From positions 1 to 6,389 of the forward strand of contig DAOVMP010000026.1 in assembly GCA_030630695.1 (NCBI GenBank): a stretch of 6,389 nt of DNA. The letters run 5' to 3'. Position 1 is the stretch's first letter. Each line of letters opens with the position of its first letter. This document shows, in pieces, positions 1-6,389 of this stretch. The stretch comes from Candidatus Woesearchaeota archaeon (lineage in GTDB: Archaea; Nanobdellota; Nanobdellia; Woesearchaeales; ARS49). The translations under genes were made by a program, and so were the position numbers. Below the pieces are notes generated by a model that saw nothing but the letters and a program-made list of their open reading frames with translations, was not told where the DNA came from and did no database searches.

Positions 1-368
1 CCAGTACCTGTTCCGCCGCCCATTCCTGCGCAGATAAAAACCATATCTGCGTGTTTTAACTCGTCTTTTATTTCATTAAGACTTTCCTGAGCAGCTTCAG
101 CACCTTTTTGAGGAAAGCCACCGCAACCTAATCCGCGAGTAACTTCTTTGCCGATTATTAATTTTTTATCGGCTTCGCTAATATCTAAATGCTGCTGATC
201 TGTGTTGCACGCAAGAATTTCAGCACCTTTGATGCCTCTCTTGTACAACCAAGAAATCATGTTGTTACCAGCGCCGCCTGCACCGACGACTTTTATGTTG
301 GCCTGACCAACTTGCAAACCGATATTTTGGTTTGCGTTTTTTTGCGCGTTTTGTACTAAAATGTCCAT
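1..368 (-). CDS. ftsZ: Cell division protein FtsZ, N-terminal 122 residues (3' part beyond the window)
   Basis: FtsZ is the tubulin-like GTPase that polymerises into the division ring at mid-cell. The visible part is the first 122 codons, starting at the ATG at 368-366 and leaving the window inside the GTP-binding signature GMGGGTGTG. Earlier blocks are the nucleotide-binding loop VVGAGGAGNNMI (about residues 27-38), NTDQQHL (about 54-60), and RGLGCGGFPQKG with GAEAAQES behind it. The stretch after the T3 loop (PQKGAEAAQESLNEIK) resembles archaeal FtsZ1 more than FtsZ2, but with only a third of the protein this is tentative. The T3 loop reads GCGGFP where bacterial proteins have GAGxxP with a polar residue. 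A short non-conserved tail (about 20 residues) precedes the GTPase fold, which fits this start. A run of six G lies 6 nt upstream of the ATG as ribosome-binding site. Confidence 0.96.
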   Translation of the reverse strand, partial: MDILVQNAQKNANQNIGLQVGQANIKVVGAGGAGNNMISWLYKRGIKGAEILACNTDQQHLDISEADKKLIIGKEVTRGLGCGGFPQKGAEAAQESLNEIKDELKHADMVFICAGMGGGTGT

Positions 369-669: not shown

Positions 670-1323
670 TTAGGTTTTTCTCGACGGGGATTTTTTCTTT
701 CCCGACGCTATTTTTCTAAAAAGTTCTTTGCCTTTTTCTGCAGCTTGTTTAATATGAGTTCCATAATAACCCATATACGCGGCTATATCTTTTATCCTAT
801 TACCCCATTTGTCAATAAAAACTACATCTGTTAAAGGATATTTCTCTGGCATTTGAGGCTGTTCAGCAGGATAACCAACAGGAACAATACCAAGAACTCT
901 TATGTTATCTGGAGCACCAACAGCTCTTTTAACCTGATCTTCTTCACAAGCACCAACCCAACAAGCGCCTAATCCTTGGGCATGAGCTGCTAATAACATA
1001 TTTTCAATAGCAGCAGCAGCATTTTGCAGGCAATACATTTTTTCCCCTTTATCACCATAATATCTTTCTGATTTGCCAGGATTAGAACAAACAACAATAT
1101 GAACAGGAGCATCATTCATCCAAGTCTGCATACACGCAGCCATTGAAATCTTTTCTCTAGCTTTATAATCTGTAACCAAAATAAAATTCCATTCCTGAAC
1201 ATTTCCAGCAGAAGGAGCTAATCTTGCTGAATCTAAAATATTACCAATCAATTCAAAAGGAATAGGCTGATCCTTAAAACGCCGAACACTTCTACGAGTT
1301 TTAATACATTCTAATGTATCCAT
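670..1323 (-). CDS. Nitroreductase-family FMN flavoprotein (217 aa)
   Basis: Members of this family bind FMN and use NAD(P)H to reduce nitro groups, quinones, flavins or other acceptors; the natural substrate cannot be told from sequence. Visible marks in order: RRSVRRF (residues 10-16), the first FMN phosphate contact; LAPSAGNVQEWNF (35-47), where the usual QPW is QEW; CLQNAAAAIENMLLAAHAQG (98-117), the dimer-interface and FMN helix; GACWVGA (119-125); and GIVPVGYP (145-152). Length to residue 185 is normal for the family; the last 30 residues form a lysine/arginine-rich tail (KGKELFRKIASGKKK) that may contact nucleic acid or simply be disordered. GAGGT lies 3 nt before the ATG and supports the start. 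The gene is transcribed away from the ligase gene, from a shared 192-bp region. Predicted cytoplasmic; no signal peptide or membrane segment. Confidence 0.93.
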   Translation of the reverse strand: MDTLECIKTRRSVRRFKDQPIPFELIGNILDSARLAPSAGNVQEWNFILVTDYKAREKISMAACMQTWMNDAPVHIVVCSNPGKSERYYGDKGEKMYCLQNAAAAIENMLLAAHAQGLGACWVGACEEDQVKRAVGAPDNIRVLGIVPVGYPAEQPQMPEKYPLTDVVFIDKWGNRIKDIAAYMGYYGTHIKQAAEKGKELFRKIASGKKKSPSRKT

Positions 1324-1421: not shown

Positions 1422-1440
1422 CGCCAAATTATATTTGGCG
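1422..1440. repeat. Perfect inverted repeat CGCCAAAT-TAT-ATTTGGCG
   Basis: An 8-bp perfect stem with a 3-nt spacer in the divergent promoter region. It is the most GC-rich palindrome of the region and is built from two head-to-head copies of the TTTGGCG box also found upstream of ftsZ. It lies downstream of the plus-strand TATA candidates, so it could be an operator or a hairpin at the start of the ligase transcript. Confidence 0.6.
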
Positions 1441-1441
1441 A

Positions 1442-1520
1442 GCTTCATTTTTACCAGAGGCAAAAATGAAACATCAAAGACAAATGTCTTTGGGCTTCAT
1501 TTTTGAAAAACAAAAATGAA
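1442..1520 (+). promoter_or_regulatory. Structured ligase leader with duplicated start-codon hairpins
   Basis: Two copies of TTCATTTTT/AAAAATGAA form hairpins: 1444-1452 with 1462-1470, and 1496-1505 with 1511-1520. Between them CAAAGAC (1475-1481) pairs with GTCTTTG (1486-1492). The first hairpin holds AGAGG (1456-1460) in its loop and the ATG of a mini-ORF (1466-1468) in its 3' arm; the second holds the ligase ATG (1516-1518) in its 3' arm. Because the arms are identical, an alternative nested fold is possible: 1461-1470 with 1496-1505 around the central hairpin, and 1444-1452 with 1512-1520 outside. Two exclusive folds would suit a translational switch; that role is inference. Confidence 0.6.
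1466..1519 (+). CDS. 17-codon leader mini-ORF overlapping the ligase start (ATGA)
   Basis: The frame reads MKHQRQMSLGFIFEKQK and stops at the TGA at 1517-1519, which overlaps the ligase ATG as ATGA. AGAGG lies 5 nt before its ATG, a good ribosome site, whereas the ligase ATG has none of its own. This is the usual arrangement for translational coupling: ribosomes finishing the peptide could restart on the ligase. The peptide resembles nothing I know, and half of it is dictated by the duplicated hairpin sequence, so it may matter only as a translated leader. It could also be fortuitous. Confidence 0.4.
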   Translation: MKHQRQMSLGFIFEKQK

Positions 1521-3273
1521 ATACGCGGAATTGGTGGGGATTTATGATAAATTAGAGGGCACTACTAAAAGATTAGAGAAAACACACTATCTTTCTGGAT
1601 TTTTGAAAACAGTTGATACTGCGGAAATGGATAAAGTATTGTTATTAGTCCAAGGAAGAGTATTTTCGCCATGGGATGAAAGAAAAATAGGAGTTGCTGC
1701 CAGACTTTTATTAAAAGCAATACAAATATCAACAGGAATAGATGCTGAACAAGAATGGAAAACAACAGGAGACTTAGGAAGAGCCGCTGAAAATTTAATC
1801 GGAAGAAAAAAACAAGTCACATTATTTTCACAAGAATTGACTGTTGACAAAGTCTTTGATAACTTGCAGAAACTCGCTTCTTTAGAAGGAACAGGAACAG
1901 TTGATAAAAAAATAAAATTAATTGCAGAATTATTAACAAGTGCAAGTCCTTTGGAAGCTCGATATATTATTCGAACCGTAATTGAAGAACTGCGCGTTGG
2001 ACTGGGGGAAGGAACAATCCGGGATTCTATTGTATGGGCTTATTTTGGTGAACAAGCAAAAATAAGTTATTTAATCAAAGAAAACAAATTTGAAGTAGAA
2101 AATAGAGAAGAATACATGAAGTATGTAGATGCTGTGCAGGAAGCATATGATGTTGTAAATGATTTCTCAGTTGTTTCAAAAGCGGCAAAACAAAAAGGAT
2201 TTGAAGGATTATCTGAAATCAAATTAGAATCAGGAACACCAATTAAAGTAATGCTTTACCCAAAAGCGAAAAACATAGAAGATGCATATTCCATTGTAGG
2301 AAAACCTGCGGCATTTGAATACAAATACGATGGGTTTAGAATGCAGATACATAAAAACAATCAAGAAATAAAAATATTCACCCGTCGATTAGATGATGTA
2401 ACTGAACAATTTCCAGATGTTTTAGACTTTGTTGAAAAACATGTTGAAGGAGATTCATTTATTATCGATTGTGAAGCAGTTGGATATGATCGTTTCAGCA
2501 AAAAATACATTGCTTTTCAAAGTATATCCCAAAGAATCAGAAGAAAATATGATATAGAAGAAATTGCTAAAAAGTTTCCAGTAGAATTAAATGTTTTTGA
2601 CGTGATTTTTTACAACGGAGAAAATCTAATCAAAAAACCATTTTCAGAAAGACGAAAAATATTAGTTTCAATGATAACAGACCCCGAATATCTGAAAATA
2701 AAACCAGCAGAGCAATTTATAACTTCAAATATTTCTGAAGCAGAAGAATTTTATCAAAAAAGTTTAGAAGCAGGAAACGAAGGAATTATGGTAAAGAATT
2801 TGGCTGGAATCTACAAGCCGGGTGCTCGTGTTGGCTATGGAGTAAAAGTAAAACCAACAATGGAAACAGTAGATGCAGTAATAGTTGGAGCAGAATGGGG
2901 AGAAGGCAAACGATCTGCTTGGCTTGCAAGTTTTATAATTGCTGTACGCGATGCTGAAACCGGCGAATTTTTAGAAATCGGTCGTGTGGGTACTGGAATT
3001 AAAGAAAAAGCAGAAGAAGGAGTGAGTTTTGGACAGTTGACAGAGATGATGAAGCCTTTGATAATTAAAGAAGAAGGCAAAATCGTTTATGTCAAGCCAG
3101 AAATAGTTATTGAAATCAATTATGAAGAGATACAACGTAGTCCTACTTATAAATCCGGCTATGCTTTACGATTTCCTCGTTTGGTTCATTTGCGCGAAGA
3201 AAGAAGCCCTGAAGAAATAACTACTCTTGAGGATATTGAAATTATTTATGAATCTCAGAGAGGGAGAGGGTAG
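1516..3273 (+). CDS. lig: ATP-dependent DNA ligase, archaeal type (585 aa)
   Basis: Seals nicks in duplex DNA using ATP, in Okazaki-fragment joining and repair. The protein shows the full three-domain layout. The N-terminal DNA-binding domain covers about residues 1-215. The adenylation domain has motif I EYKYDGFR (268-275, AMP-accepting Lys270), motif III FIIDCEAVGYD (315-325), IIIa YIAFQSIS (331-338), IV EGIMVKN (422-428) and V YGVKVKP (441-447). The OB domain follows, with motif VI in RFPRLVHLREE (552-562). Length is normal for archaea. The start MKYAELVGIYDKLEGTTKRL matches the usual archaeal N-terminus, so the ATG at 1516 is right despite lacking a ribosome site; see the coupled mini-ORF upstream. 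The C-terminus EDIEIIYESQRGRG is duplicated 0.45 kb downstream. The receiver gene begins 7 nt after the stop and is likely co-transcribed. Confidence 0.98.
   Translation: MKYAELVGIYDKLEGTTKRLEKTHYLSGFLKTVDTAEMDKVLLLVQGRVFSPWDERKIGVAARLLLKAIQISTGIDAEQEWKTTGDLGRAAENLIGRKKQVTLFSQELTVDKVFDNLQKLASLEGTGTVDKKIKLIAELLTSASPLEARYIIRTVIEELRVGLGEGTIRDSIVWAYFGEQAKISYLIKENKFEVENREEYMKYVDAVQEAYDVVNDFSVVSKAAKQKGFEGLSEIKLESGTPIKVMLYPKAKNIEDAYSIVGKPAAFEYKYDGFRMQIHKNNQEIKIFTRRLDDVTEQFPDVLDFVEKHVEGDSFIIDCEAVGYDRFSKKYIAFQSISQRIRRKYDIEEIAKKFPVELNVFDVIFYNGENLIKKPFSERRKILVSMITDPEYLKIKPAEQFITSNISEAEEFYQKSLEAGNEGIMVKNLAGIYKPGARVGYGVKVKPTMETVDAVIVGAEWGEGKRSAWLASFIIAVRDAETGEFLEIGRVGTGIKEKAEEGVSFGQLTEMMKPLIIKEEGKIVYVKPEIVIEINYEEIQRSPTYKSGYALRFPRLVHLREERSPEEITTLEDIEIIYESQRGRG
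3245..3267 (+). repeat. 23-bp direct repeat, copy 1 (ligase 3' end)
   Basis: Exact 23-bp match to 3698-3720, beginning TTTATGAATCTC. This copy encodes the YESQRGR end of the ligase. The distance between copies is 453 bp and encloses exactly the receiver gene. Confidence 0.95.
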
Positions 3274-3280
3274 AGTTCTT

Positions 3281-3682
3281 ATGAAAAAAGATATTCTATT
3301 GGTTGATGACGAAGAGAAGTGGGTAAGGTTAATGTCTAGAAAGGTGAAAAAAACCAGATTTAATCCTATCGAATTTACAGATTTCTATAGGGCTCTTGAT
3401 TATGTTATTGAAAAAGCAGGAGATTTGTATGCTTGTTTTGTAGATATGAAACCAATTCTCAAAGATCCTACCACCATGCAAATAACAGATGAAGAAAGAA
3501 ATCTACTAGAAACTCCTGAAAAGATGTATAATGAAGCACGATCAAGAGGGGCAAGTGATAGATTTTATTTTATTTCTGCTCATAAAAGTGAATATGACGA
3601 GGGCGTTCTTGAAAGAACTGGCGCAGGATTTATTCAAAAAATTGATTTAAGAAAAAAGATTTCTGAAATTCTAGGGGAATAG
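3281..3682 (+). CDS. Single-domain response-regulator receiver protein (133 aa)
   Basis: A CheY-like receiver domain with no output domain; such proteins take a phosphate from a histidine kinase and act by protein contact. Visible: hydrophobic strand then acidic pair ILLVDDEE (D9, D10), candidate phosphoacceptor in ACFVDMKP (D55), switch residue in FYFISA (S99), and conserved lysine in FIQKID (K120). A stretch of about 30 residues after D55 (KDPTTMQITDEERNLLETPE) is longer than the usual loop and may form an extra helix. The frame is open further upstream to 3227 inside the ligase gene, but the receiver fold starts at MKKDILLVDD, so the ATG at 3281 is chosen; GAGAGGG sits 10 nt before it. No kinase gene is nearby. 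It lies directly behind the ligase and between two copies of the ligase tail, so it appears to have arrived there by a recombination event. Confidence 0.88.
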   Translation: MKKDILLVDDEEKWVRLMSRKVKKTRFNPIEFTDFYRALDYVIEKAGDLYACFVDMKPILKDPTTMQITDEERNLLETPEKMYNEARSRGASDRFYFISAHKSEYDEGVLERTGAGFIQKIDLRKKISEILGE

Positions 3683-3726
3683 AAGATATAACAGTTCTTT
3701 ATGAATCTCAGAGAGGGAGAAATTAA
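3682..3726 (+). pseudogene. Remnant: duplicated, diverged 3' end of the DNA ligase gene
   Basis: Read in frame from 3682 this gives EDITVLYESQRGRN and a TAA, against EDIEIIYESQRGRG and TAG at the true ligase end. Ten of 14 residues are identical and two of the changes are conservative (I/V, I/L), in the same reading frame, so it is a second ligase C-terminus and not a chance repeat. Upstream of it there is no ligase sequence, only the receiver gene, whose TAG (3680-3682) touches it. Its TAA overlaps the stop codon of the convergent sigma gene. Best explained as the tail of the former resident ligase gene, displaced when ligase plus receiver (or the receiver alone with a new ligase end) was inserted. 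Confidence 0.8.
3698..3720 (+). repeat. 23-bp direct repeat, copy 2 (ligase tail remnant)
   Basis: Identical to 3245-3267. Upstream of the exact core the two copies still match at about 16 of 22 positions, so the identity fades gradually on that side and stops abruptly on the other. Confidence 0.95.
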
Positions 3727-5027
3727 TTATTATTTAATAATTTAATAAGCCCTTTTGAAACGTGTTTAAGTTTTCTCTTAACCTTTTTTTCAATCTGCCT
3801 TACGCGTTCTTTACTTAAATTAAGTACTCTGCCGCATTCTTTAAGAGTATGTGCTTTTCCGTCAGAAAGGCCATATCTTAAACACAGAATTTGTTTTTCT
3901 CTTTCAGGAATACTATCAAGAGCGCTTCTAACTATTTGCCTTAATTCTTCGGTTTCTAATCTAGAATCCGATTTTTCTGTTTTTTTATCCTCAATAAATA
4001 TCTTGAAAGAATCATTACTATTTTTATTTACTTTTAAATCTAAAGAAACGACCGGTCTTAACACAGCTAATGCATTTTTAACTGTAAAAACAGATAAATT
4101 ACAAATTTCTGCAATTTTTTCTGTATAGGGCAGGGACTTGTTTTCGATTTTAAGACGGTCTTTTAATTTTTTAATTTTATTTGCGGCATCAAGAACATGA
4201 ATCGGCATTCGCATAGCTCTATACTGCGTTGAACGATTTTTTAAAATACCTTGTTTAATCCACCAAGAGGCATATGTAGAAAATTTATATCCTTTTCTAT
4301 AATCAAATCGTTCTAAAGCATCGATAAGACCGTTGTTTCCTATTTGTATTAAATCATCTCGGGCAATGTATGAAGAGTTTCTGTTAGATGAATATTTGCC
4401 GGCAATACGCGCAACTAATTTTAAATTTGAACAAATAAAATTATCAAAGAGTTCTTTATACTGTTTGTTAATTTGATATGCTAATTTTATTTTGTTTGTA
4501 TCTTGTTCTGAAAAAATTCCTTTAACTTCTGTTAGTTTGATTAAATTATTAATATGTTGATTTAAAAACCCTTTTGAAATATTAAACGTGCTCAAAAGAT
4601 TAAATTTATGAATTCTTTTAAAGCAAATTCTTTTTTCAAGATCTCTTTGTTTATATGCTCTTTTTGTTGTTTTATATATCTGATTTAATCTTTTGATTTC
4701 CTTGTTAATCTTATCTATTGTTTTAAGAGATTCACTTAACTGAAGCTTAATATCTAAACTAAAATTATCTTTTCCAAATAAAACAATTTCCTTTAAATCA
4801 GAATTAAGGCAAAATTCTAAACTGCCGTGGTAAGAATCAAGTATGCATAATTGATAGATTATTCTTTTTTGGCTATGCCAAATTAATTTAGTTTGTTTTC
4901 TTTCTTCCTGTCTAGACAACAAATTAAAAGAAGCTATTTGATTAGAATAATTTCTATTAGGATCTATAAGTTTATTAGATTTTGAGATTTCTGCCTTTTT
5001 ATCTGCGTATTGTCTCCCCTCACTCAT
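3723..5027 (-). CDS. Bacterial-type sigma-70 factor (RpoD/SigA-like, regions 1.2 to 4), 434 aa
   Basis: In bacteria sigma-70 factors bind core RNA polymerase, recognise -10 and -35 elements and melt the promoter. Conserved blocks in order: region 1.2, DPNRNYSNQIASFNLLSRQE (22-41); a lysine-rich helical spacer (about 50-190) in the place of the non-conserved region; 2.1, NFICSNLKLVARIAGKY (196-212); 2.2, DDLIQIGNNGLIDALERFDY (224-243); 2.3, YKFSTYASWWIKQ (247-259) with the melting WW pair; 3.0, MPIHVLDAANKI (274-285); region 3.1 about 299-326; the finger with FIED (344-347); region 4, from ALDSIPEREKQILCLRYGL (369-387) to the helix-turn-helix TLKECGRVLNLSKERVRQIE (394-413). Region 1.1 is absent. 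Compared with E. coli, T440 of region 2.4 is leucine and R584 of region 4 is lysine; E585, R588 and Q589 are kept. Neighbours are archaeal, where sigma factors are not expected. No Shine-Dalgarno precedes the ATG. Convergent with the ligase-receiver operon, stop codons overlapping. Confidence 0.95.
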   Translation of the reverse strand: MSEGRQYADKKAEISKSNKLIDPNRNYSNQIASFNLLSRQEERKQTKLIWHSQKRIIYQLCILDSYHGSLEFCLNSDLKEIVLFGKDNFSLDIKLQLSESLKTIDKINKEIKRLNQIYKTTKRAYKQRDLEKRICFKRIHKFNLLSTFNISKGFLNQHINNLIKLTEVKGIFSEQDTNKIKLAYQINKQYKELFDNFICSNLKLVARIAGKYSSNRNSSYIARDDLIQIGNNGLIDALERFDYRKGYKFSTYASWWIKQGILKNRSTQYRAMRMPIHVLDAANKIKKLKDRLKIENKSLPYTEKIAEICNLSVFTVKNALAVLRPVVSLDLKVNKNSNDSFKIFIEDKKTEKSDSRLETEELRQIVRSALDSIPEREKQILCLRYGLSDGKAHTLKECGRVLNLSKERVRQIEKKVKRKLKHVSKGLIKLLNNN

Positions 5028-5220: not shown

Positions 5221-5313
5221 CGCCCCTGCGAGGATTTGAACCCCGGTTTCACGGATTTTACTTTTAGAAAAGAACCGCAACCGTGCGTACTGTCCAAGCT
5301 ATACTACAGGAGC
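5221..5313 (-). tRNA. tRNA-Arg, anticodon GCG, with a 19-nt intron
   Basis: Acceptor GCTCCTG pairs with CAGGGGC (one T-G wobble), discriminator G, no encoded CCA. D arm GTAT/GTAC with loop AGCTTGGACA; anticodon stem CACGG/CCGTG; four-nt variable loop; T arm CGGGG-TTCAAAT-CCTCG. The mature anticodon loop is TTGCGGT, giving anticodon GCG (5278-5276), which reads CGC and CGT. A20, an arginine identity base, is present. Mature length is 74 nt. The tRNA-Arg call rests on the splice position, which is well supported by the bulge-helix-bulge fold. Confidence 0.93.
5256..5274 (-). other. Archaeal tRNA intron at position 37/38
   Basis: TTGC (5280-5277) pairs with GTAA near the intron 3' end (one G-T wobble), a 4-bp central helix flanked by 3-nt bulges GGT and AAT. 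Cutting after the second base of each bulge, as the archaeal splicing endonuclease does, leaves a 7-nt anticodon loop and a 19-nt intron. The inner loop helix is weak (AT pairs with a mismatch). This motif is strong evidence that the DNA is archaeal. Confidence 0.85.
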
Positions 5314-5340: not shown

Positions 5341-5369
5341 AAAAAACTATCTCTTAATCAAAAAAGAGA
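5341..5369 (-). terminator. Possible hairpin/T-run terminator of the small membrane protein gene
   Basis: On the minus strand TCTCTT (5369-5364) pairs with AAGAGA (5355-5350), then TAG and six T (5346-5341). The stem overlaps the stop codon at 5358-5360. The T-run also lies about where a TATA box of the tRNA gene would be expected, so its role is ambiguous. A 10-bp palindrome CTTCTAGAAG (5328-5337) lies between it and the tRNA. Confidence 0.35.
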
Positions 5370-5807
5370 ATCTGCCTGACTTGTCCATTGACCACATTCT
5401 TTTTTACGAGTATCCAAATCCCAATAATAATCAACACACTCAGGAACAGTAGAAGCAAGACAAACACTGACAGAATTTCTGCTAATGTCTCCAACTTTAA
5501 TACCTACTTGTTCACCAAGCCAAGAATTAGTAAGTTCAAGATACGGAGTTAAAACACCATCCACATTAAACCTCGCTCCTGGACCTTTTATGTCCACAAG
5601 TTCAACAGTGCCTTCAATTCCTCTAAATTTATATTCAGCAAAATAATTAGCAGACAAACCAGTAAAACTCATATGAGGAATTATAAAACCACCATTACAT
5701 GCAGGCAGTCTTTTAATAGCTTGACCAGTTCCAAAATAAGCAAAATACATACCACCAATAGCAACTGCAAGAACTGCAACAAAAATAACTGCTTCAAGCT
5801 TTTCCAT
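5358..5807 (-). CDS. Membrane-anchored protein of unknown function (149 aa)
   Basis: I do not recognise a family. Residues 6-25 (AVIFVAVLAVAIGGMYFAYF) form one hydrophobic segment behind a short charged N-terminus MEKLE, so the protein is an N-terminally anchored or secreted protein with about 120 residues outside. The outer part carries four cysteines (C37, C116, C124, C138), which could form two disulphides, and alternating hydrophobic strands (EYKFRGIEGTVELVDIKG, 58-75) that suggest a small beta domain. AAGAGGT (5820-5814) lies 6 nt before the ATG, a strong ribosome site. It starts 17 nt after the stop of the PHP gene and is probably in one operon with it; the tRNA follows downstream. Confidence 0.8.
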   Translation of the reverse strand: MEKLEAVIFVAVLAVAIGGMYFAYFGTGQAIKRLPACNGGFIIPHMSFTGLSANYFAEYKFRGIEGTVELVDIKGPGARFNVDGVLTPYLELTNSWLGEQVGIKVGDISRNSVSVCLASTVPECVDYYWDLDTRKKECGQWTSQADSLF

Positions 5808-5824: not shown

Positions 5825-6389
5825 CTATCTATAGAATAACTTATTTATAAATCTTGCTGTGAATTTCCTAAACATACTGATTCCTCTACCTACTGGCAAA
5901 GGAGATATTTTACCATCTGCATGGGTTTTTTTCTTTTTAATAGCAGATTTTAAATTTCCATTGAATAAGGTATAGCCTCTGCCAATTTCATTATAGGAAT
6001 GAGCATCAGAACCGCCTGTTTTAGCCAGTTTGTATTTTGCCGCTGCTAATTCTGCATAGAAATTTTCCCAATGAAACATATTTCTAGCATTATGAGTTTC
6101 AACACCATTTAACCCTTTCAAATACTTAATATCAATACCTGCACACTTTCTTATGATTCCATGACCAAAAGGATGAGCTATAACTGCTATTCCGCCTTGT
6201 TTATGAATTTCTTTAATAACTTGTTTTGGATCTCTTGATTTAATTTCCTTTTTAAGATAATAACCTAAAATTTCACCAACTTTTGTTTTGATTTCAGCTC
6301 CTATGATCACTTCAAAATTCTTATCTTTGTTTAAACTATTAGCTTCTAAACCGCCTTTGATTGTATTATGATCTGTTATAGCAATTCCA
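5825..6389 (-). CDS. PHP-domain metal-dependent phosphoesterase, C-terminal 187 residues (5' end beyond the window)
   Basis: PHP proteins hydrolyse phosphate esters with a bound metal cluster; relatives act on nucleotides, RNA ends or histidinol phosphate, and the substrate here cannot be named. Visible blocks, counted from the window edge: GIAITDHNTIKGGLEA (1-16) with the DH ligands, IIGAE (28-32) with a glutamate ligand, AVIAHPFGH (68-76), VETHNAR (96-102) and TGGSDAHSYNEIGRG (124-138) with the final Asp and His ligands. The N-terminal HxH motif is missing because the gene enters from outside. An internal GTG at 6310-6308 could be mistaken for the start, but the frame is open and conserved upstream of it. 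After residue 150 there is a lysine-rich tail ending in KFTARFINKLFYR. Likely the first of an operon with the membrane protein. Confidence 0.93.
   Translation of the reverse strand, partial: GIAITDHNTIKGGLEANSLNKDKNFEVIIGAEIKTKVGEILGYYLKKEIKSRDPKQVIKEIHKQGGIAVIAHPFGHGIIRKCAGIDIKYLKGLNGVETHNARNMFHWENFYAELAAAKYKLAKTGGSDAHSYNEIGRGYTLFNGNLKSAIKKKKTHADGKISPLPVGRGISMFRKFTARFINKLFYR

What the first reader, a model, noticed from the sequence alone, without database searches (positions are those of the whole stretch)
3723..5027. A complete bacterial sigma-70 factor inside an archaeal gene neighbourhood
The sequence directly shows regions 1.2, 2.1-2.4, 3.0-3.2 and 4.1-4.2 of a primary-type sigma factor, including the WW melting pair and FIED finger. 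Flanking genes on both sides are archaeal: an archaeal ligase with its tail on one side, and a tRNA with a BHB intron on the other. Established knowledge: archaeal RNA polymerase uses TBP, TFB and TFE and does not use sigma; the flap-tip that sigma region 4 grips in bacteria is not expected in archaeal RpoB. Inference: this may be a captured initiation factor serving a set of transferred bacterial genes, a tool aimed at a bacterial partner's polymerase, or a factor adapted to the archaeal clamp coiled-coil. The intact frame and conserved contacts argue for selection.
Basis: partly seen in the sequence, partly recalled or inferred. Interest (0 to 1): 0.93.

Follow-up and report, generated by a model that had tools for sequence, protein, structure and literature searches.

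The report
Bacterial sigma factor in an archaeon
An archaeon carries, among its own genes, an intact gene for a protein of the kind bacteria use to start reading genes; its relatives' polymerase lacks a part that such proteins grip in bacteria, so it likely steers only a few genes, and that such archaea hold these proteins was already in print.

Summary
Window 3723-5027, minus strand, encodes a 434-aa sigma-70 protein with regions 2, 3 and 4 above Pfam cut-offs and a weak region 1.2. It is no artefact: same-genus G001 has a sigma gene in the same slot between ligase and tRNA-Arg; the 11 other ligase loci compared have none. Sigma-70 region 2 occurs in 128 of 371 genomes of the phylum. Sigma-70 in Woesearchaeota is already published (Castelle 2021, passages). 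Sharpened here: 56 relatives have one RpoB match each; in the 54 flap loops read, with and without sigma, length is constant and the bacterial tip helix absent. Bacterial-type promoters are not enriched in one sigma-bearing genome, archaeal ones are, and the test works on bacterial DNA. Residues that read -10/-35 DNA and face the clamp are mostly kept, yet sigma evolves far faster than its neighbours. Best reading: a specialised factor for few promoters in its own cell, mechanism untested (0.4). A bacterial partner's polymerase as target is not excluded (0.18).

The parts
3723..5027 (-). sigma-70 family gene, 434 aa, ATG start
4881..4979 (-). aa 17-49, weak match to sigma region 1.2
   Evidence: 2.6 and 5.3 bits; Pfam PF00140 not hit
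4455..4880 (-). aa 50-191, helical in the model, at the place of the non-conserved region of RpoD; weakly related to the same part of the G004 (two) and G001 sigmas
4230..4430 (-). sigma region 2 (aa 200-266), clamp-facing and -10-reading (roles recalled)
4260..4265 (-). WW melting pair, aa 255-256 (E. coli W433/W434 positions)
   Evidence: sequence
3975..4184 (-). sigma region 3 (aa 282-351)
3987..3998 (-). FIED, region 3.2 finger, aa 344-347
   Evidence: sequence
3762..3923 (-). sigma region 4 (aa 369-422), -35-reading HTH (role recalled)
3..368 (-). ftsZ (cut by window end)
670..1323 (-). nitroreductase-family protein
1516..3273 (+). ATP-dependent DNA ligase, left flank of the sigma slot
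3281..3682 (+). small receiver-like ORF (133 aa) between ligase and sigma; weak Response_reg match
   Evidence: E 0.029, below cut-off; no match in the 15 relative loci compared
3229..3267 (+). 39-nt direct repeat, copy 1 (ligase 3' end)
3682..3720 (+). 39-nt direct repeat, copy 2 (85%), between receiver-like ORF and sigma
5221..5313 (-). tRNA-Arg(GCG) with a 19-nt insertion just after the anticodon, right flank of the sigma slot
5358..5807 (-). hypothetical protein (hydrophobic N-terminus by eye), present in G001 and G002
5825..6388 (-). PHP-associated protein (cut by window end)

Best explanation
This is an intact bacterial-type sigma-70 gene at home on a woesearchaeal chromosome, and its product most likely works inside its own cell as a specialised promoter factor, predicted to dock by region 2 on the archaeal polymerase's clamp coiled coil at a small set of promoters, not as a general initiation factor. 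Shown: the gene, its domains, its place in the genus, its spread in the phylum, a single RpoB match in each of 56 relatives (archaeal where read), no flap-tip helix in the 54 flap loops read, and no genome-wide -35/-10 signal in one sigma-bearing relative. Inferred: that the protein binds the archaeal polymerase at all; that region 2 is the docking part (the coiled coil keeps an arginine aligned near E. coli beta-prime R275, by eye; the role of R275 is recalled); that region 4 then reads DNA without its usual polymerase contact, or by a new one; and that few promoters are served. TFB is found in the window's own bin and in 29 of 30 genomes tested (the miss, G022, is sigma-bearing), so ordinary initiation would go on as in other archaea.
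For: Own-cell residence: sigma in the same slot in G001; region 2 in 128 of 371 genomes of the phylum, including a one-contig genome (G031), against 0 of 4 archaeal control genomes. Constraint: of 63 archaeal sigmas 30 keep all of W434+Q437, R/K584-E585-R588-Q589 and D/E403-G408, the window among them; in the pair G244/G251 (dS 0.87) the core has w 0.14. Own transcription looks archaeal: 58 sigma-gene upstream stretches differ from their antisense for BRE/TATA (p 0.016; 8 above the line, 2.9 expected) and not for -35/-10 (p 0.66; 1). Not general: no -35/-10 excess in G033, with archaeal excess in the same gaps and a working bacterial control. TFB in 29 of 30 genomes incl. the window's bin. Clamp-facing D/E403-G408 is the best kept of the three residue sets (53 of 63).
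Against: No flap tip for region 4 to grip in 54 of 54 RpoB' flap loops read, yet region 4 is no more relaxed relative to bacteria than region 2 (ratios 0.82 and 0.81 against 0.81 and 0.72). No change in flap loop length or clamp between sigma-bearing and sigma-free genomes, so no sign that the polymerase adapted. No target promoter was identified. The window sigma is only 25-29% identical to its positional counterpart in G001 while neighbours are 64-87%, and G001's lacks region 3, which fits weak constraint as well as specialisation; other, saturated pairs give core w 0.10-0.45. The tree does not make archaeal sigmas one clade, so conserved residues may partly echo repeated arrivals from bacteria. 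No other gene family recurs at more than 5 of 40 sigma loci, so no operon names the targets.
Confidence: 0.4

Rival explanations
1. The sigma is made by the archaeon but acts on the RNA polymerase of a bacterial partner or prey: delivered into it, it would assemble with bacterial core through clamp and flap and redirect its transcription.
For: Region 4, which in bacteria grips the flap tip (recalled), is no more relaxed than region 2 though the archaeal flap loops read lack that tip; archaeal promoter signals lie upstream of sigma genes as a set; rapid divergence; Castelle 2021 suggests that some Pacearchaeota and Woesearchaeota might be episymbionts of bacteria (abstract).
Against: Secretion signals and delivery systems were not searched for. 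SLT murein-lytic domains are not clearly associated with sigma (OR 1.43, p 0.12; without the window's family OR 1.58, p 0.044, not corrected for kinship) and gave no match in the 16 genomes of the window's family drawn. Conserved region 4 may reflect bacterial ancestry.
Confidence: 0.18
2. A sigma-derived DNA-binding regulator: the fold is kept for reading DNA (region 4 HTH, region 2) but it no longer works as an initiation factor with any polymerase.
For: No flap tip, no genome-wide promoter signal; G001's version has lost region 3; ten archaeal sigmas examined carry long extra parts.
Against: Clamp-facing D/E403 and G408 are the best kept of the residue sets counted (53 of 63), which a pure DNA binder would not need, unless they are kept for the fold.
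Confidence: 0.2
3. A passenger: sigma genes arrive repeatedly from bacteria or mobile DNA, insert beside tRNA genes or in variable gaps, and drift away without lasting function.
For: Patchy presence (128 of 371); no sigma at the ligase in 11 of 12 relatives' ligase loci; fast divergence; not one clade.
Against: Open frames in the matches listed; core w 0.14 in G244/G251; shared slot in G001 and related N-terminal parts across two genera of the family.
Confidence: 0.15
4. Assembly chimera or binning contamination.
For: The bin is 65.7% complete with 2% contamination and does hold a Patescibacteria-like rpoB-rpoC contig.
Against: Same gene order around a sigma in G001, and archaeal genes on both sides in one contig; sigma in a one-contig genome; published exclusion of mis-binning for this kind of gene.
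Confidence: 0.02

Closest known systems
DPANN sigma-70 family fam00359 of Castelle et al. 2021 (PMC8204110)
   Same: sigma-70 encoded by Woesearchaeota, mis-binning ruled out, mechanism unclear, no anti-sigma found (passages)
   Different: the passages seen give no locus, residue, polymerase or promoter analysis; whether the window protein is in fam00359 was not tested
Sigma factors in Archaea, Rinke et al. 2013 (Nature; recalled, not held; credited with describing archaeal sigma factors first in PMC6126073, passage)
   Same: archaeal sigma factors
   Different: not read; lineage and sequences not compared
Bacterial RpoD/SigA (group 1/2 sigma-70)
   Same: regions 2-4, most -10 and -35 reading residues, FIED finger, predicted fold finds RpoD/SigA chains
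   Different: about 40% identity over the core only; no region 1.1 match; diverged N-terminal half; host group's polymerase without flap tip
MzaA of the MZA anti-phage system
   Same: second-best NCBIfam match (207.9 bits) and a PADLOC match
   Different: far below the 800-bit cut-off; Pfam and NCBIfam scans of the seven window ORFs name no other MZA gene

Membership tests
sigma-70 family (superfamily level) | regions 2 and 4 above curated cut-off | tested here: met
sigma-70 family (superfamily level) | -10 and -35 reading residues (positions recalled) | tested here: met
   window keeps W433, W434, Q437, E585, R588, Q589; R441 and R584 are K, T440 is L
Primary (group 1) sigma, RpoD equivalog | equivalog score and region 1.1 | tested here: not met
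   208.5 bits against 555 needed; no region 1.1 match
Group 1/2 sigma | region 1.2 | tested here: inconclusive
   2.6 and 5.3 bits to SigA; PF00140 not hit in the window, above cut-off in G019's sigma, below it in G004's
Functional sigma factor | binds core RNA polymerase and directs initiation | not testable with these tools
   needs bench work
Functional general sigma factor of its genome | -35/-10 promoters enriched upstream of genes | tested here: not met
   tested in the relative G033 only; not in the window's own genome
Woesearchaeal sigma-70 (fam00359, Castelle 2021) | sigma-70 on woesearchaeal DNA | tested here: met
Woesearchaeal sigma-70 (fam00359, Castelle 2021) | falls in the same protein cluster | not tested
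MZA system (MzaA) | MzaA equivalog score | tested here: not met
   207.9 bits against 800

The most novel reading that the evidence does not exclude
An archaeal symbiont makes a bacterial sigma factor as an inter-domain effector: it enters a bacterial partner and commandeers that partner's RNA polymerase, which, unlike the archaeon's own, has the flap tip that the conserved region 4 grips.
Probability: 0.18. Interest if true: 0.95.

Novelty: new member of a known kind. Interest (0 to 1): 0.5.

Why it matters
Archaea are taught to start transcription without sigma. About a third of the genomes sampled in this phylum carry a sigma-70 region 2, some several, and the relatives examined have no bacterial polymerase to match. 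Either archaeal RNA polymerase can use sigma, which would bear on how the two initiation systems diverged, or these proteins act on someone else's polymerase, which would be a new kind of cross-domain control. The locus, residue, flap, clamp and promoter comparisons here turn a published oddity into a question with a clear bench test.

Tried and rejected
Contamination or chimera of the locus: rejected by synteny. Bacterial polymerase in the same cell: the window's bin holds a bacterial rpoB-rpoC piece (contig C107, 3021 bp), but its RpoB is nearest to Patescibacteria (83% to an unnamed best hit, 73% to the best named one), it has an in-frame TAA, and the 27 other genomes with a match and the 29 have one RpoB match each, archaeal where read; taken as a co-binned contaminant (inference). 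MZA defence sigma: below cut-off. Split sigma in tandem pairs: both members of the six pairs have a region 2 match, so not split. A fixed partner gene: none. Viral origin: 33 viral loci matched, best-scoring one at 36% identity; not analysed further. Fused extra domains: none beyond HTH hints in ten long sigmas. One archaeal clade: not supported, tree mostly unresolved (8 of 63 archaeal rows, G001's among them, were left out for under 75% fill). Link with murein-lytic enzymes: none clear; link with GrpE OR 2.06, p 0.003, probably genome size or completeness (inference). Two attempts to read the clamp failed by my own pattern and were replaced. A -10-only score and an extended -10 score in G033 were also without effect (8 and 5 above the line, 4 expected; p 0.24 and 0.88).

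Full report
WHAT IS THERE. The window is contig C92 of a 699-kb bin in 147 contigs, 65.7% complete, 2% contaminated. The ORF 3723-5027 lies on the minus strand and encodes 434 aa. Pfam regions 2, 3 and 4 are above their cut-offs. In a 5.8-billion-protein set (7,996 candidates scored, best 120 listed) the hits after the window itself are RpoD-like proteins, the best at about 40% identity over the core. A predicted model (mean pLDDT 80.2, pTM 0.63) finds RpoD/SigA chains first by fold (TM-scores by query length only 0.21-0.43 in the 50 rows listed and rmsd 24-33, so this supports the domains and not their arrangement).

IT BELONGS TO THE ARCHAEON. In the same-genus genome G001 the order is ftsZ, nitroreductase, ligase, sigma, tRNA-Arg(GCG), hypothetical, PHP, as in the window. 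Twelve relatives' ligase loci were compared; only G001's has sigma. G002, also of the genus and 92% complete, has no sigma match and about 620 bp between ligase and tRNA-Arg; G012 has about 40 bp and G008 about 150 bp there; in the other eight no tRNA-Arg was found downstream of the ligase. No convincing remnant of sigma was seen in G002. Of 62 other archaeal and 167 bacterial sigmas, the window's first 195 aa match best those of G004 (two genes, E 5.7e-7 and 3.2e-5) and G001 (3.6e-4), with two bacterial proteins close behind (about 1.2e-3) and G019 not matched; G001's N-terminal part matches G019 and G004 (1.4e-11 to 3.4e-5) and G019's matches G004 and G001 (5.5e-33 to 3.8e-11), with no bacterial protein listed for either. 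This points, weakly for the window itself, to a sigma lineage of this family. The record that fits G001's protein is named Candidatus Woesearchaeota at NCBI.

HOW COMMON. A protein search finds sigma in 20 of 37 genomes, the window's included. Region 2 (PF04542) is found in 84 of 240 genomes of the order and 128 of 371 of the phylum (93 of 243 good ones), with up to six per genome; the control rings in 10 of 10 bacteria and 0 of 4 archaea. Already in print: Castelle 2021 reports sigma-70 (fam00359) as particularly prevalent in Woesearchaeota, with mis-binning ruled out, no anti-sigma identified and the mechanism unclear (passages; abstract and outline). A 2018 review credits Rinke and colleagues with first describing archaeal sigma factors (passage; the Rinke paper is not held). 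By contrast a 2025 paper and a 2026 review still say that archaea have or need no sigma (PMC12316311 and PMC12993045, one passage each). In the listings of seven literature searches I saw no experimental study of an archaeal sigma; the library holds open-licence papers only.

WHICH POLYMERASE. RpoB domain 1 (PF04563) has exactly one match in 25 of 30 genomes, domain 6 (PF00562) exactly one in 28 of 30 and in 29 of 30 further sigma-bearing genomes; PF04997 (A'/beta-prime) one in 29 of 30. No genome has two. The exception in kind is the window's own bin, whose only rpoB-rpoC piece is bacterial, on contig C107, nearest to Patescibacteria; its own archaeal rpoB was not found in this incomplete bin, so the flap and clamp statements rest on relatives. 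I take C107 as contamination. In the relatives the flap loop SPPRF...RESS has one length in 26 of 26 read (16 sigma-bearing, counting G012 and G014 known only from region 4 matches, and 10 sigma-free; G017 escaped the pattern) and in 28 of 28 read in the second set (G239 escaped the pattern), without the tip helix seen in E. coli and on C107. The clamp coiled coil is practically identical in 20 sigma-bearing and 8 sigma-free genomes. So no bacterial polymerase and no visible adaptation of the archaeal one was found. TFB is found in 29 of 30; the miss is sigma-bearing G022.

WHAT THE SIGMAS KEEP. Mapped on E. coli RpoD, of archaeal rows with a letter there: D403 54/58, E407 44/59, G408 54/59, W433 37/60, W434 50/60, Q437 45/60, R441 42/60, R584 48/60, E585 48/60, R588 49/60, Q589 51/60. 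The window has Q406, G408, N409, W433, W434, Q437, E585, R588, Q589, but I at E407, L at T440 and K at R441 and R584. The roles of these positions are recalled. The bacterial rows were picked by patterns from the window and are thus biased. Information per column follows that of bacteria in every region (r 0.83-0.92) at 0.68-0.82 of its level, and region 4 is no more relaxed than region 2. By an own Nei-Gojobori script, window-G001 sigma has 29% identity and w 0.60 near saturation (dS 1.46), against w 0.07-0.10 for ftsZ, nitroreductase, ligase and PHP; the pair G244/G251 has core w 0.14, C-terminal extension 0.57, three neighbour ORFs 0.04, 0.065 and 0.30; three further pairs with high dS give core w 0.10, 0.39 and 0.45.

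PROMOTERS. In 81 tandem gaps of G033, whose sigma has E. coli-like DNA-reading residues (by eye), a -35/-10 score shows no sense excess (1 above the antisense 95% line, 4 expected, p 0.71), while archaeal BRE/TATA does (18, p 2.9e-5). Sigma-free G034 (82 gaps): -35/-10 8, p 0.24; BRE/TATA 15, p 0.009. Twenty-six low-GC bacterial loci give 19 of 80 for -35/-10 (p 7e-5), so the test has power; BRE/TATA there is 7 (p 0.02), so that score is not wholly specific. Upstream of 58 of the 63 archaeal sigma genes the paired test is significant only for BRE/TATA (p 0.016; 8 above the line, 2.9 expected); extended -10 has 7 above the line but p 0.38, and -35/-10 has 1 (p 0.66). The window gene's own upstream scores 4.2 for both models, so it says nothing by itself. 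In the window -35/-10-like sites are as many as in shuffles (24 against 26.2).

READING. The sigma is real, resident and in part constrained, but there is no sign that it is a general initiation factor. I favour a narrow role in its own cell through the clamp, at 0.4, since proteins mostly act where they are made and the clamp-facing residues are the best kept. The strongest fact against this is that region 4 stays conserved where its bacterial contact is missing, which is what an effector aimed at bacterial polymerase would show; repeated arrival from bacteria (12 label changes, 21.3 in shuffles, at least 2 forced by well-supported branches) could also explain it. SLT co-occurrence does not clearly favour the effector idea. 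The mechanism stays open.

Noticed in passing
window 3229-3720: A small receiver-like ORF (3281-3682) lies between two 39-nt direct repeats (85%) of the ligase 3' end; G001 and G002 lack it, so it looks like an insertion with tail duplication.
   Followed up: partly
G000:C107 1-3021 (L213): Patescibacteria-like rpoB-rpoC piece with an in-frame TAA inside the archaeal bin; a naive search would read it as a bacterial polymerase of the archaeon. Co-binning with a physical partner is possible but untested.
   Followed up: partly
window 5221-5313; L142 11731-11804; L291 1449-1524: tRNA-Arg(GCG) has a 19-nt insertion in the window and none in G001; G002's tRNA is also short (76 nt). The tRNA's strand relative to sigma differs between window and G001.
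   Followed up: partly
L142 about 11870-11894: Downstream of G001's tRNA-Arg lies an imperfect second copy of the tRNA's 3' end, as integrated elements leave; it is on the side away from sigma (by eye, short match).
   Followed up: no
L238, L239, L240, L241, L242, L243: Six loci with two sigma genes side by side in the same direction; both members have region 2 matches.
   Followed up: partly
L239, L146, L242, L245: A large isoleucyl-tRNA synthetase-like ORF (named by eye) lies beside or within a few kb of sigma in four genomes of three families.
   Followed up: no
L140, L253, L180, L144, L138, L143, L179, L134, L250, L145: Archaeal sigmas of 713-1052 aa with long extra parts that match no Pfam domain above cut-off except sigma regions, only weak HTH and other hits; the C-terminal extension of G244/G251 evolves fast (w 0.57).
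   Followed up: partly
L146 6370-7619: G035 sigma appears in two overlapping frames (336 aa with region 2, 87 aa with region 4): frameshift, split gene or assembly error.
   Followed up: no
L245 5483-6142 and L242 15285-15821: Receiver-like small proteins in two further sigma neighbourhoods, as in the window (the L242 one above Pfam cut-off, the L245 one below).
   Followed up: no
window 1422-1493: Two hairpin-like inverted repeats of 8 pairs each between nitroreductase and ligase.
   Followed up: no
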